Shown piece after piece: positions 14,327 through 62,085 of a stretch of 64,000 nt of DNA. The notes under the pieces were generated by a model. The model did no database searches. It was not told the DNA's origin and saw only the letters and a program-made list of their open reading frames with translations. Location of the stretch: assembly GCA_024123915.1 (NCBI GenBank), contig CP099650.1, forward strand, positions 1,302,001 to 1,366,000, read 5' to 3'. This DNA is from Oxalobacteraceae bacterium OTU3CAMAD1. Lineage in GTDB: Bacteria > Pseudomonadota > Gammaproteobacteria > Burkholderiales > Burkholderiaceae_D. Each line of letters starts with the position of its first letter. The stretch's first letter is position 1. Position numbers and translations under genes: made by a program.

Positions 14327-15823
14327 TCAGAACTCCCCATCCAGGCCATCTTGCACTTGTTCGGCGGCGCGCAGCACGGCGCGCGCCTTGTTTTCGGTTT
14401 CCTGCCATTCCATCTCGGCGATCGAATCGGCGACGATGCCGGCGGCGGCCTGCACATACAGCATGCCGTCCTTGATCACGCCGGTGCGAATCGCGATGGC
14501 GACATCCATCTCGCCGCCGAACGACAGGTAGCCGCAGGCGCCGCCGTAGATGCCGCGCTTGGAGATTTCCAGTTCGTCGATCACTTCCATCGCGCGCACT
14601 TTCGGCGCGCCGGTCAGGGTGCCGGCCGGGAAAGTGGCGCGCAGCACGTCCAAGTTGGACAGCCCGTCTTTCAGCTTGCCCTCGACGTTGGAGACGATGT
14701 GCTGCACATGCGAGTATTTTTCGATGACCAGGCGGTCGGTGACCTTGACGCTGCCGATCTCGGAGATGCGGCCCAAGTCATTGCGCGCCAGGTCGATCAG
14801 CATCACGTGTTCGGCGATCTCTTTCGGATCGGCCAGCAGTTCCTTGGCCAGTTCGGCGTCGCGTTCCGGCGTCGAACCGCGCGGACGGGTGCCGGCGATC
14901 GGGCGCAAGGTGACTTTTTTCTCACCGTCCGGCAGCGTCTCGTTGCGGACCAAAATCTCCGGCGAGGCGCCGACGATCTGCATGTCGCCGAAATTGTAGA
15001 AGTACATATACGGCGACGGATTCAGCGAGCGCAGCGCGCGGTACAGCGTCAGCGGCGAATCGACGTAGGGCTTGCGGATGCGCTGGCCGATCTGCACCTG
15101 CATCAAGTCGCCGGCCATCACGTATTCGTGGGCCTTGGCGACCGCCTTCAGGTACTCCTCTTTCGGGAAGTCGCGGATGGTTTCGGTGCGCACCGAAGCG
15201 CTGGTCACCGGCGCGTCGACGCCACGGCGCAGCATCATGCGCAGGTCCTTCAGGCGCTGGCGCGCCTTGCTGAAGGACTCGGGCTGGGTGGTGTCGGCAT
15301 AGACGATCAAATACAGCTTGCCGGACAGGTTGTCGATGACGGCCAGTTCCTCGGTCACCATCAGCTGGATGTCGGGCAGGCCCAGATCGTCCTTCGGCTG
15401 CGTGTTGGCCAGGGTTTTTTCGATGTGGCGCACGGTGTCGTAGCCGAAGTAGCCGGCCAGGCCGCCGCAGAAGCGCGGCATGCCCGGACGCAGCGCCACT
15501 TTAAAGCGCTTCTGGTAGGCCTCGACGAATTCGAGCGGATTGCCTTCGTGGGTCTCGATCACGGCGCCGTTCTTGACGATTTCGGTGCGGGTGCCGAAGG
15601 TGCGCAGCACGGTGGTCGCCGGCAGGCCGATGAACGAGAAGCGGCCGAAGCGCTCGCCGCCGACGACCGATTCGAGCAGGAAGGTGTTCTTACCGGCGTT
15701 CTGGGTCTGGGCCAGTTTCAGGTACAGCGTAAGCGGGGTTTCGAGGTCGGCGAAGGCTTCGGCGATCAGTGGGACGCGGTTGTAGCCTTCGTTGGCCAAC
15801 GATTTGAATTCGAGTTCGGTCAT
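14327..15823 (-). CDS. trpE: Anthranilate synthase component I
   Basis: A 498-residue chorismate-using enzyme making anthranilate with TrpG. The N-terminal [16 protein letters not shown] segment is the tryptophan feedback-binding motif; the catalytic half has [49 protein letters not shown] and YGGACGY. The ATG at 15823 follows GGAGAGAAG; a 7-codon upstream extension is discarded. It is preceded by a leader peptide and attenuator (15875-16009), so expression should respond both to feedback inhibition and to transcription attenuation. Confidence 0.95.
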
Positions 15824-15874
15824 GTCTTCTCTCCATGCCGCCAAAAGATGGGTGTGGGTTGGCGGTGGTTTGTC

Positions 15875-15909
15875 AAAAAACCTGTCGGGTGCGCGTGCAC
15901 GTGCGACAG
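15875..15909 (-). terminator. trp attenuator (intrinsic terminator before trpE)
   Basis: On the minus strand CTGTCG pairs with CGACAG around an inner GTGC/GCAC helix and is followed by G and T6. It begins 13 bases after the stop codon of the Trp-rich leader peptide and ends about 50 bases before trpE, the arrangement of a classical tryptophan attenuator. The part CTGTCGC can also pair with GCGAC inside the leader codons. Confidence 0.85.
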
Positions 15910-15922
15910 CAATCAGTTCGGC

Positions 15923-16009
15923 TTAGTTTTGCCAGGATTGCCAGCGTCGCCAAAGCCAGGCCTCAATCGAGCCGGTTTGGTTGACATTGTGTTTTTTGAT
16001 GGAAGACAT
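15923..16009 (-). CDS. trpL: trp operon leader peptide
   Basis: A 28-codon frame (ATG 16009, TAA 15923) encodes a peptide starting MSSIKKHN and ending EAWLWRRWQSWQN. Four Trp codons fall within nine codons, far above chance, close to the stop and immediately before a terminator hairpin. Starved ribosomes would stall there and let the leader fold into an antiterminator. The ribosome site is weak (no clear GGAG). It lies 26 bases after the gph stop, so it can act on read-through from rpe-gph as well as on any promoter inside gph. Confidence 0.85.
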   Translation of the reverse strand: MSSIKKHNVNQTGSIEAWLWRRWQSWQN

Positions 16010-16035
16010 TCGGTCAGGTTTGGTTCAGCTAAAGG

Positions 16036-16719
16036 TTAATTTTGCGAACTTATACGGCTTGCCGCGTCGAGCAGCGTGTCTACTATACCATCGGAATCGA
16101 TCCCGTGTATAGACTGTCCGTGATTGTAACCGTAAGGCACCGTCAACACCGGACAACCCGCAGCCCGGGCCGCTTGCGCGTCGTTCGAGGAGTCGCCGAT
16201 GGCCACCACCTGGGCCGGCGGCAGGTCGAAATCGGCGCACACGGTTTGCAGCGGCAGCGGATCGGGCTTCTTGCGCGGCAGCGAATCGCCGCCGTAGACT
16301 ACGTCGAAAAAGCCGTCCAGACCCTTGAGCTTGAGCAGCGGCGTGGTGAAGGCGATCGGCTTGTTGGTCACGCAGGCCAGGCGCAGGCCGCTGGCTTTCA
16401 TCGCCGTCAGGCCTTCGATCACGTCCGGGTACAAGGTGCTGTGGTTGCCGTTGATGCCCAGGTAGTGCCGCTGATAGGCGTCCATCGCCGCGTCGAAGCG
16501 TTGCTCGACGCCGGCCGCGTCCGCCTGCAAGGCCAGCACGGAGCGGATCAGGTTTTCCGAACCCTTGCCGACCATCAGCGCGATTTGCTCTTGCTCGATG
16601 GAATCGAGGCCCAGTTCTTGAAGCATGCCGTTGATCGCCACGTGAAAGTCGGGAATCGTGTCCAGCATGGTGCCGTCGAGGTCGATGATTGCGGCGCGCA
16701 CGCCTATCAGCACGCTCAT
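16036..16719 (-). CDS. gph: Phosphoglycolate phosphatase
   Basis: A 227-residue HAD-superfamily hydrolase. Nucleophile motif DLDGT (Asp13, Asp15), motif II VTNKP, Lys in RKKPDPLPL and motif IV GDSSNDAQAA are all present, with a helical cap between motifs I and II. It removes phosphate from 2-phosphoglycolate. It starts one base after the rpe stop, and trpE follows; the rpe-gph-trpE order recurs in proteobacteria. Confidence 0.88.
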   Translation of the reverse strand: MSVLIGVRAAIIDLDGTMLDTIPDFHVAINGMLQELGLDSIEQEQIALMVGKGSENLIRSVLALQADAAGVEQRFDAAMDAYQRHYLGINGNHSTLYPDVIEGLTAMKASGLRLACVTNKPIAFTTPLLKLKGLDGFFDVVYGGDSLPRKKPDPLPLQTVCADFDLPPAQVVAIGDSSNDAQAARAAGCPVLTVPYGYNHGQSIHGIDSDGIVDTLLDAASRISSQN

Positions 16720-29869: not shown

Positions 29870-31403
<1,534 letters not shown>

Positions 31404-31480
31404 GAGTGGCACGAACCCGTTAAACGGTTCACTCATCAAGCGTTCACACTTATCGACTGTCAATATAAAGAACAGCATTT

Positions 31481-31557
31481 GGGGCTGTAGCTCAGCTGGT
31501 TAGAGCACCGTGTTGATAACGCGGGGGTCGTTGGTTCGAGTCCAACCAGCCCTACCA
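31481..31557 (+). tRNA. tRNA-Ile (GAT), spacer of rRNA operon 1
   Basis: A 77-base cloverleaf with acceptor GGGGCTG opposite CAGCCCT (a G-U at the end), anticodon GAT in TTGATAA, TTGGTTCGAGTCC in the T-arm and encoded CCA. Confidence 0.95.
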
Positions 31558-31581
31558 GTTTTACCCTAGTAGTAAATCTCA

Positions 31582-31657
31582 GGGGGATTAGCTCAGCTGG
31601 GAGAGCACCTGCTTTGCAAGCAGGGGGTCGTCGGTTCGATCCCGTCATCCTCCACCA
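31582..31657 (+). tRNA. tRNA-Ala (TGC), spacer of rRNA operon 1
   Basis: A 76-base cloverleaf with acceptor GGGGGAT opposite ATCCTCC, anticodon TGC in TTTGCAA, and encoded CCA; 24 bases after tRNA-Ile. Confidence 0.95.
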
Positions 31658-31727
31658 AAAGTTCAAACGTAAGTCAGCCAGTTTGGTTGCGATTTAGGTT
31701 TGATCTTTTAGAGATCAAGTGCTGTAC

Positions 31728-31740
31728 GTTCTTTAACAAT
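31728..31740 (+). promoter_or_regulatory. boxA-type antitermination site before 23S, operon 1
   Basis: GTTCTTTAACAAT in the tRNA-Ala to 23S spacer matches the boxA element bound by the NusB-NusE antitermination complex. Confidence 0.6.
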
Positions 31741-31879
31741 CTGGAAGAAGTAAGTAAATTTTTATTGATCGCATCACCGACAGGTGGCGCGATGGGTAAT
31801 GATTGTATGTATCAACAAACGCAACAACGTAGTACTTCTTATTCCTATAAACGCTCCTTGTTTAGTCGCAGGGGCTAAC

Positions 31880-34766
<2,887 letters not shown>

Positions 34767-34890
34767 TAGCAGGTTATGGTTGAATAAGAAGTGCGTTGAA
34801 ACGTTCGTTGATACACAACTTCATTACCCCATTTACTTACTTCTCCAGATTCTGAGCAACGTTCACAAGAACGCGGCTCGTACAAGTCAA

Positions 34891-35005
34891 TGCCTGATGA
34901 CCATAGCAAGTTGGTCCCACCCCTTCCCATCCCGAACAGGACCGTGAAACAACTCTGCGCCGATGATAGTGCTGCAACCAGTGTGAAAGTAGGTTATCGT
35001 CAGGC
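34891..35005 (+). rRNA. rrf: 5S ribosomal RNA, copy 1
   Basis: TGCCTGATGACCATAGC at the start pairs with the GTTATCGTCAGGC end; TTGGTCCCACCCCTTCCC and CCGAACAGGA are the usual loop sequences. The end is approximate. Confidence 0.93.
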
Positions 35006-52924: not shown

Positions 52925-53035
52925 GATTTATTTTTCTGTTAGAAGCAACCGGCCTACTTCCCCGTGGGCCAGATTGAACAGAAGCGGATAACCGAGAGAT
53001 GCGCGCGCATAGTCGGTTCGCCCACTTCCACCTGC

Positions 53036-53228
53036 TTTGGCCGGTATCCGGGCTGGCAAGTTAGACCATCTCACCTTCCCATGCGAAGCACAGTGGTTGT
53101 CAGAGCTGGTTTGTCGCGCGCCGCGCGACACTTGCTTACCGTTGCGGGGGCAGCACACGTGGGCCGCTGGGCGGCTTCGTGTTTCCCGTTTAACTGCGCA
53201 TCCGGACGGACGCGCGGGCACCAAAGCC
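53036..53228 (-). ncRNA. Cobalamin riboswitch
   Basis: On the minus strand the leader contains, in order, GGTGCCC, AAACGGGAAACACG, GCTGCCCCCGCAACGGTAAGC, CCACTGTG, CATGGGAAGGTGAGA and the B12-box-like GCCCGGATACCGGCC. This is the canonical AdoCbl riboswitch order. It begins within a few bases of the predicted transcript start and ends about 110 bases before btuB, leaving room for an expression platform acting on the btuB ribosome site or on a terminator. Confidence 0.93.
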
Positions 53229-53232
53229 GGTC

Positions 53233-53262
53233 ATTATACGGCTTTGATGTGTGACTTGATAA
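53233..53262 (-). promoter_or_regulatory. Promoter of the cobalamin operon
   Basis: A perfect TATAAT (53238-53233) is preceded at 18 bases by TTATCA (53262-53257). The start of transcription would fall just ahead of the riboswitch. Confidence 0.65.
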
Positions 53263-56936: not shown

Positions 56937-58470
<1,534 letters not shown>

Positions 58471-58547
58471 GAGTGGCACGAACCCGTTAAACGGTTCACT
58501 CATCAAGCGTTCACACTTATCGACTGTCAATATAAAGAACAGCATTT

Positions 58548-58624
58548 GGGGCTGTAGCTCAGCTGGTTAGAGCACCGTGTTGATAACGCGGGGGTCGTTG
58601 GTTCGAGTCCAACCAGCCCTACCA
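58548..58624 (+). tRNA. tRNA-Ile (GAT), spacer of rRNA operon 2
   Basis: Identical to the copy at 31481-31557. Confidence 0.95.
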
Positions 58625-58648
58625 GTTTTACCCTAGTAGTAAATCTCA

Positions 58649-58724
58649 GGGGGATTAGCTCAGCTGGGAGAGCACCTGCTTTGCAAGCAGGGGGTCGTCG
58701 GTTCGATCCCGTCATCCTCCACCA
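58649..58724 (+). tRNA. tRNA-Ala (TGC), spacer of rRNA operon 2
   Basis: Identical to the copy at 31582-31657. Confidence 0.95.
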
Positions 58725-58794
58725 AAAGTTCAAACGTAAGTCAGCCAGTTTGGTTGCGATTTAGGTTTGATCTTTTAGAGATCAAGTGCTGTAC

Positions 58795-58807
58795 GTTCTT
58801 TAACAAT
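58795..58807 (+). promoter_or_regulatory. boxA-type antitermination site before 23S, operon 2
   Basis: GTTCTTTAACAAT, same as in operon 1. Confidence 0.6.
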
Positions 58808-58946
58808 CTGGAAGAAGTAAGTAAATTTTTATTGATCGCATCACCGACAGGTGGCGCGATGGGTAATGATTGTATGTATCAACAAACGCAACAACGTAGT
58901 ACTTCTTATTCCTATAAACGCTCCTTGTTTAGTCGCAGGGGCTAAC

Positions 58947-61833
<2,887 letters not shown>

Positions 61834-61895
61834 TAGCAGGTTATGGTTGAATAAGAAGTACGTTGAGGCGTTCGTTGATACACAACTTCATTACC

Positions 61896-61911
61896 CAGTA
61901 TTGAGATACTG
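61896..61911 (+). other. Hairpin insertion in 23S-5S spacer of operon 2
   Basis: CAGTAT-TGAG-ATACTG, a perfect six-base-pair hairpin absent from operon 1. It accounts for the 13-base length difference between the two 23S-5S spacers. Confidence 0.8.
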
Positions 61912-61970
61912 ATTACTTACTTCTCCAGATTCTGAGCAACGTTCATATGAACGCGGCTCGTACAAGTCAA

Positions 61971-62085
61971 TGCCTGATGACCATAGCAAGTTGGTCCCAC
62001 CCCTTCCCATCCCGAACAGGACCGTGAAACAACTCTGCGCCGATGATAGTGCTGCAACCAGTGTGAAAGTAGGTTATCGTCAGGC
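61971..62085 (+). rRNA. rrf: 5S ribosomal RNA, copy 2
   Basis: Same sequence as the 5S at 34891-35005. Confidence 0.93.

What the first reader, a model, noticed from the sequence alone, without database searches (positions are those of the whole stretch)
15875..16009. Complete trp attenuator: leader peptide with four Trp codons plus terminator
A 28-codon minus-strand frame ends in WLWRRWQSWQN and is followed 13 bases later by a strong hairpin with T6, then trpE. A segment inside the Trp codons (GCGAC) can pair with the terminator's first arm (GTCGC), offering the alternative fold. It is too short for routine gene calling and sits between gph and trpE, so it would uncouple trp genes from rpe-gph read-through.
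Basis: partly seen in the sequence, partly recalled or inferred. Interest (0 to 1): 0.7.

Follow-up and report, generated by a model that had tools for sequence, protein, structure and literature searches.

The report
Tryptophan-sensing attenuator before trpE
Just ahead of its tryptophan-making genes this bacterium carries a tiny gene rich in tryptophan codons and a transcription stop signal, which together probably switch the genes off when tryptophan is plentiful; it is a textbook type of switch, here in a form shared by many related bacteria and not found in the two family libraries searched.

Summary
All 110 trpE loci taken from the nearest relatives (104 distinct) carry a W-x-W-R-R/G core upstream, out to Cupriavidus, Pandoraea and Burkholderia; of 60 more distant loci 44 have clustered Trp codons there and 16 do not. 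An extended -10 promoter, TGGTATAGT or nearly so, lies in the end of gph in 101 of 110. I file it as a ribosome-mediated trp attenuator.

The main antiterminator is GGCAATC:GATTGCT, starting 16 nt past the first base of Trp codon 1; GCGAC:GTCGC lies at the edge of, or under, a ribosome waiting there. A co-transcriptional folding score that behaves correctly on E. coli trpL puts the switch between Trp codons 1 and 2, though single leaders seldom beat their own shuffles. Unlike E. coli, untranslated RNA is predicted to read through (39 of 40). The leader lacks a Shine-Dalgarno sequence, and its core is constrained at nucleotide level (rare CGA codon in 106 of 115). Rfam and NCBIfam gave no match. 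There are no expression data; the mechanism is inferred.

The parts
16082..16090 (-). extended -10 promoter element TGGTATAGT inside the 3' end of gph
   Evidence: TGnTATAnT 40-220 nt upstream of Trp codon 1 in 101 of 110 loci, 99 identical; 0 of 110 on the antisense strand. All 43 matches to a degenerate pattern for Asp-Gly-Ile-Val use GGT ATA, although ATA is 9 of 177 Ile codons in eight window genes. Start site itself not shown.
15923..16009 (-). leader peptide ORF, 28 codons, 4 Trp
15974..15985 (-). possible segment 1 (GTCAACCAAACC), predicted to pair with TGGCTTTGGCGAC in ribosome-free RNA
   Evidence: fold; CCAAA goes with Leu codon CTT in 24 of 38 leaders against 4 of the other 84, not corrected for relatedness
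15956..15958 (-). Trp codon 1, predicted sensing codon
   Evidence: drop in pairing of the terminator's first arm between codon 1 and codon 2
15950..15952 (-). Trp codon 2, at the margin of the switch
15946..15950 (-).
   Evidence: pairs with 15907-15903 when the ribosome is upstream of Trp codon 1
15936..15942 (-). GGCAATC, main antiterminator 5' arm (overlaps Trp codon 3 and the Gln-Ser codons)
   Evidence: CAA in 94 of 95 Gln codons and TCC in 73 of 79 Ser codons at these positions
15908..15914 (-). GATTGCT, main antiterminator 3' arm; its last two bases are the terminator's first two
   Evidence: GATTGC between stop codon and trpE in 53 of 122 leaders
15882..15909 (-). intrinsic terminator hairpin
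   Evidence: -12.5 kcal/mol; fourth pair of the canonical stem is T-A in 22, C-G in 13, T-G in 5 of 40
15875..15880 (-). T6 tract
15838..15865 (-). second hairpin (CCGCCAA...TTGGCGG) just ahead of the trpE Shine-Dalgarno sequence; role unknown
   Evidence: perfect arms of 5 or more in 77 of 93 distinct tails; 30 on average and 39 at most in 50 shuffles of the same tails (first seen)
14327..15823 (-). trpE, first gene of trpEGDC
   Evidence: TIGR00564 over cut-off
16036..16719 (-). gph, upstream gene that holds the promoter element
   Evidence: NF009695 over cut-off

Best explanation
This is a ribosome-mediated transcription attenuator of trpEGDC. Transcription starts from a promoter inside gph (inferred). 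A ribosome translates the leader ORF closely behind RNA polymerase. If charged tRNA-Trp is scarce it waits at Trp codon 1; GGCAATC then pairs with GATTGCT (extended by GCGAC:GTCGC if the ribosome leaves it free), the terminator's first arm is occupied before its second arm is made, and transcription continues into trpE. If tryptophan is ample the ribosome moves past Trp codon 2 towards the stop, covers the antiterminator's first arm, the terminator forms, and a short RNA of roughly 200 nt ends at the T tract. Shown: anatomy, conservation, conservation of the promoter element. Predicted by folding: the two states. Inferred: start site, termination in the cell, tryptophan response.
For: Trp core upstream of trpE in 110 of 110 near loci, 0 of 110 antisense; Trp clusters in 44 of 60 wider loci against 6 and 3 in two controls. 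Before the terminator's 3' arm is made, mean pairing of its 5' arm with upstream RNA in 40 leaders is 0.80 (ribosome edge 8 nt past the first base of the A-site codon) or 0.63 (12 nt) at Trp 1, 0.39 or 0.18 at Trp 2, 0.05 at the stop codon (12 nt, 39 leaders). E. coli trpL, averaged over 8 arm positions instead of 6, gives 0.62 at both Trp codons and 0.01 at stop with 12 nt, 0.23 with 8 nt. Shuffled upstream RNA shows little contrast: 0.54/0.48 at Trp 1, 0.44/0.40 at Trp 2. An automatic version (at least 0.5 at Trp 1 with either edge, at most 0.25 at stop) passes 65 of 78 leaders with a terminator, 26 of 38 outside the canonical set. Compensatory T-A/C-G exchange in the terminator stem. No Trp repressor hit over cut-off in 59 of 60 family genomes; the one in G000 is a partial match in a 362-aa frame.
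Against: No expression data. With a 12-nt footprint the helix available at Trp 1 shares only two bases of the terminator's first arm by sequence. Pairing is not monotonic: from CGA to Trp 3 it returns to 0.36-0.37 on average, and for the window's leader the later arm bases reach 0.5-0.66 at Trp 3 and Trp 4. Single leaders rarely beat their own shuffles: at Trp 1, 12 of 40 (8 nt) and 2 of 40 (12 nt) have at most 1 of 20 shuffles as high. Folding with the complete terminator at equilibrium fails on E. coli too. No terminator by script in 44 of 122 leaders. Seven of 20 divergent members of the same family lack a Trp cluster.
Confidence: 0.83

Rival explanations
1. A four-segment attenuator exactly like E. 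coli trpL, in which a protector hairpin (segments 1:2) lets the terminator form once no ribosome is present, and GCGAC:GTCGC is the antiterminator.
For: GTCAACCAAACC can pair with TGGCTTTGGCGAC in the window's RNA; CCAAA and CTT go together across leaders.
Against: With no ribosome the terminator's first arm stays paired to upstream RNA: mean 0.83, over 0.5 in 39 of 40 leaders from 60 nt before the ATG, 37 of 40 from the ATG; E. coli gives 0 to 0.2 per position. GCGAC starts 8 nt past the first base of Trp codon 1, at or under the stalled ribosome.
Confidence: 0.2
2. A fixed terminator that only insulates trp from rpe-gph; the Trp-rich ORF is incidental or no longer used.
For: The terminator follows the ORF closely; the leader has no Shine-Dalgarno sequence.
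Against: The Trp core is kept in 110 of 110 near loci; GATTGC outside the ORF is kept in 53 of 122 leaders; the promoter element lies upstream of the terminator, so a fixed terminator would silence trp.
Confidence: 0.04
3. The conserved nucleotides are kept mainly because the terminated RNA or the leader peptide acts on other targets, as rnTrpL and peTrpL do in Sinorhizobium.
For: Core codons are fixed at wobble positions, most tellingly CGA in 106 of 115 and GAG in 97 of 97; CGA is kept in 13 of 40 leaders whose terminator arm has C opposite its A.
Against: No target identified and no complementarity test run. In G000 trpF starts about 15 nt behind the preceding frame, leaving little room for a leader of its own. 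A/T-rich early codons look like an initiation signal rather than peptide selection.
Confidence: 0.1

Closest known systems
E. coli trp attenuator (trpL; Rfam RF00513 by recall)
   Same: Short Trp-codon ORF with an overlapping antiterminator and terminator ahead of trpE; same score pattern at Trp codons and stop.
   Different: 28 codons against 14; Trp codons W-x-W-R-R-W-Q-S-W rather than WW; antiterminator arm inside the ORF; no protector predicted; no Shine-Dalgarno sequence; Trp repressor not found over cut-off in 59 of 60 family genomes; no Rfam match even at E 5.
Sinorhizobium meliloti trpL attenuator (rnTrpL and peTrpL; PMC7298713, passages seen)
   Same: Attenuator ahead of trpE(G) with a leader peptide and a released short RNA.
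   Different: Trans functions are reported there; nothing of the kind is tested here. Peptide sequences were not aligned.
Actinobacterial trp attenuators (PMC1262725, passages seen)
   Same: Leader peptides with repeated UGG codons; complementary triples shared by antiterminator and terminator.
   Different: Different lineage; double or triple UGG repeats there, spaced Trp codons here.

Membership tests
Ribosome-mediated amino-acid attenuator (trp type) | Short ORF with regulatory codons for the amino acid made by the operon | tested here: met
   4 Trp codons; core in 110 of 110 near loci
Ribosome-mediated amino-acid attenuator (trp type) | Intrinsic terminator between leader ORF and first structural gene | tested here: met
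   Window hairpin plus T6; in relatives 78 of 122 leaders by script
Ribosome-mediated amino-acid attenuator (trp type) | Antiterminator exclusive with terminator and dependent on ribosome position | tested here: met
   By computation only: (65 of 78); the E. coli control behaves; single-leader support against shuffles is weak
Ribosome-mediated amino-acid attenuator (trp type) | Expression responds to charged tRNA-Trp | not testable with these tools
   needs an experiment
E. coli-type trp leader with protector hairpin | Terminator forms when the leader is not translated | tested here: not met
   By computation only: first terminator arm stays paired upstream in 39 of 40 leaders without a ribosome
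Any Rfam family, trp leader included | Covariance-model match | tested here: not met
   No match up to E 5 in 15700-16150
Trans-acting leader peptide or RNA (peTrpL/rnTrpL type) | Effect on separate target genes | not tested
   no target search run; only the spacing ahead of trpF in G000 was looked at

The most novel reading that the evidence does not exclude
The Burkholderiales trp leader is a distinct attenuator design. Read-through is the default RNA fold, and a translating ribosome that has passed Trp codon 1 must itself cover the antiterminator arm to permit termination. The leader starts without a Shine-Dalgarno sequence, from an A/U-rich initiation region, and carries a fixed rare CGA Arg codon that may hold the ribosome on that arm. 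Loss of leader translation would then induce the operon, the opposite of E. coli.
Probability: 0.35. Interest if true: 0.55.

Novelty: new member of a known kind. Interest (0 to 1): 0.4.

Why it matters
It supplies a concrete model for control of tryptophan synthesis in a family where no Trp repressor hit passed the cut-off in 59 of 60 sampled genomes. It defines an RNA element and small ORF, absent from Rfam and NCBIfam as searched, that recur across many genera; some relatives make tryptophan-derived pigments such as violacein (recalled). The predicted opposite response to loss of leader translation is a simple, sharp test.

Tried and rejected
Equilibrium base-pair probabilities over the complete terminator gave a switch, but the same calculation failed on E. 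coli trpL, so I replaced it with the score taken before the 3' arm is made. A degenerate 18-base pattern for the core over 300 order genomes was too noisy (124 of 300 matched, many with other codons; capped list). Peptide-level selection on the N-terminus was considered and set aside: the conserved residues use TTT (80 of 91 Phe) and AAA (82 of 86 and 98 of 99 Lys), although eight window genes use TTC in 89 of 99 and AAG in 66 of 121, so nucleotide-level selection is likelier. The fixed CGC (115 of 115) and GCC (103 of 111) say little, as both are the commonest codons in those genes. Literature: searches (several listings capped, for example 30 of 3,343 and 20 of 45) showed no report of a betaproteobacterial trp attenuator in the held open-access library. 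Passages of PMC4833913, PMC8632094 and PMC1173090 did not mention one. Subscription papers, notably Vitreschak et al. 2004 (seen only as a reference), could not be read, so absence is not claimed beyond that. NCBIfam's silence on a 28-aa peptide is weak evidence.

Rows dropped or never seen: one search kept 80 of 584 confirmed loci and one search gave loci for 30 of 133 genomes with TrpE, the nearest in both, so '110 of 110' speaks for near relatives; some genomes occur twice, named and unnamed (104 distinct upstream stretches). L002 (second, weaker TrpE-like hit) was left out. Six of 128 leader regions were exact duplicates (122 kept: 105 from the 110 loci, 17 from the 60); 7 of 122 lacked a recognised start or core and were left out of the codon counts, among them L039 with W-R-G. 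The regex that found leaders requires W-x-W-R (or GLWRRW), so conservation of those residues within the 115 is partly by selection; their wobble positions are not. Some of the 44 Trp clusters look accidental, as the controls (6 and 3) also suggest.

Full report
Where it is. The window lies in a 7.48-Mb, single-contig genome of the Duganella/Massilia group; the closest named TrpE is 99% identical, in Duganella sp. 1411. On the minus strand the order is rpe, gph, leader, trpE, trpG, trpD, trpC, all named by NCBIfam.

Observation. Of 975 stop-ended stretches that can code 12-60 aa in the window, two have four or more Trp in the last 11 residues, and none do in 20 dinucleotide shuffles.

Conservation. 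I took up to 420 nt upstream of trpE in the 110 loci that gave a strong TrpE match; these are the nearest relatives (80 of 584 and 30 of 133 on offer), 104 of them distinct. All 110 hold W-x-W-R-[RG] in a forward frame, against 0 antisense and 1 after shuffling. They run from Duganella, Massilia, Janthinobacterium, Collimonas, Herbaspirillum and Undibacterium to Cupriavidus, Pandoraea and Burkholderia. Of 60 further loci (20 from divergent members of the same family, 40 from 25 other families of the order), 44 have a small ORF with clustered Trp codons within 350 nt of trpE; the next 350 nt give 6 and the antisense strand 3. Sixteen of 60 have none by that test, 7 of them among the 20 of the same family.

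Nucleotide-level constraint. In 115 aligned leaders the Leu codon between Trp 1 and 2 varies freely at its third base, but Glu is GAG in 97 of 97, the first Arg is CGA in 106 of 115 (CGT in 9), Gln CAA in 94 of 95 and Ser TCC in 73 of 79. CGA is 1 of 147 Arg codons in eight window genes. Much of this stretch is the antiterminator's first arm. The fixed A of CGA is not fully explained: in 13 of 40 leaders the terminator arm has C opposite it and CGA is kept. A slow codon that holds the ribosome on the arm is a guess.

Mechanism. Equilibrium folding is not a fair test: it fails on E. coli trpL. The score used instead asks how far the terminator's first arm is paired upstream just before the second arm is made. 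On E. coli it is 0.62 at both Trp codons, 0.01 (12-nt edge) or 0.23 (8-nt edge) at the stop codon, and 0 to 0.2 per position without a ribosome. On the 40 leaders of 122 with the canonical terminator it is 0.80 (8 nt) to 0.63 (12 nt) at Trp 1, 0.39 to 0.18 at Trp 2 and 0.05 at the stop codon (12 nt; 39 leaders); in between, from CGA to Trp 3, it returns to 0.36-0.37. For the window at Trp 1 (12 nt) the first two arm positions are 1.0 and 0.97 and the third 0.42; at Trp 2 all are at or below 0.11; at Trp 3 and 4 the later arm positions reach 0.5-0.66. Single-leader significance against shuffles is weak (12 of 40 at 8 nt, 2 of 40 at 12 nt), so the case rests on the contrast between Trp 1 and Trp 2 across leaders, which shuffles do not show (0.54/0.48 against 0.44/0.40). 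An automatic version over all leaders finds a terminator in 78 of 122 and the expected switch in 65 of those 78, with 26 of 38 outside the canonical set. Four Burkholderia- and Pandoraea-type leaders examined with hand-picked terminators were mixed: two switch clearly after Trp 2 (L082, L164), two show no clean switch (L075, L080), although those two pass in the automatic version with a longer stem, where L164 was given another hairpin and L082 none.

Difference from E. coli. With no ribosome the window leader scores 0.95 and 39 of 40 leaders exceed 0.5 (37 of 40 if the RNA begins at the ATG), so no protector is predicted and untranslated leader RNA should read through. The leader ORF has a Shine-Dalgarno match of four or more bases in 2 of 103 distinct contexts; trpE itself has one in 99 of 110. 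Early codons are A/T-rich against codon preference.

Promoter and uncoupling. TGnTATAnT occurs 40-220 nt before Trp codon 1 in 101 of 110 loci, 99 of them TGGTATAGT, and in 0 of 110 on the antisense strand. Of the nine without, eight are Cupriavidus, Pandoraea and Burkholderia loci, in which the stretch I had cut out ended too near the leader or the core chosen lay elsewhere, so they are not a test; the ninth (L106) has a duplicated leader.

Known or new. Rfam and NCBIfam have no match to the leader. PMC5343134 (passages) states that TrpR is highly conserved in many groups of gammaproteobacteria but absent in other classes, and a Pfam search agrees for 59 of 60 family genomes. PMC1183508 (passages) treats ribosome release before the hairpin is complete as a source of basal read-through, which would matter more here. 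No paper on a betaproteobacterial trp attenuator turned up, within the limits given under Tried and rejected. The kind is known, so novelty is modest; the predicted inverted response to loss of translation is the most interesting open point.

Noticed in passing
window 15838-15865 (-): A second conserved hairpin sits between the terminator and the trpE Shine-Dalgarno sequence, with changing but complementary arms: 77 of 93 distinct tails have perfect arms of 5 or more, 30 on average in 50 shuffles. Possible translational or RNA-stability element.
   Followed up: partly
L106: Two leader-plus-terminator units in tandem before trpE, separated by a short trpE-start-like stretch.
   Followed up: no
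L013, L015, L016, L021, L041, L094, L097, L098, L101-L104: Janthinobacterium-type leaders have ACG where relatives have the ATG; a GTG two codons upstream may be the start.
   Followed up: no
L068, L069, L074, L077, L079, L081 and others: Leader ORF kept but no terminator found by script between it and trpE (44 of 122 leaders in all); another read-out may operate there, or the script missed it.
   Followed up: no
window 53022-53240 (-): Cobalamin riboswitch (RF00174, 81.2 bits).
   Followed up: no
window 29870-35005 and 56937-62085 (+): Two rRNA operons with tRNA-Ile and tRNA-Ala in direct orientation about 27 kb apart.
   Followed up: no
G000:C1:1713935-1714063: Partial Trp_repressor-family match (29.6 bits, positions 35-77) inside a 362-aa frame, perhaps a helix-turn-helix of another protein.
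   Followed up: no
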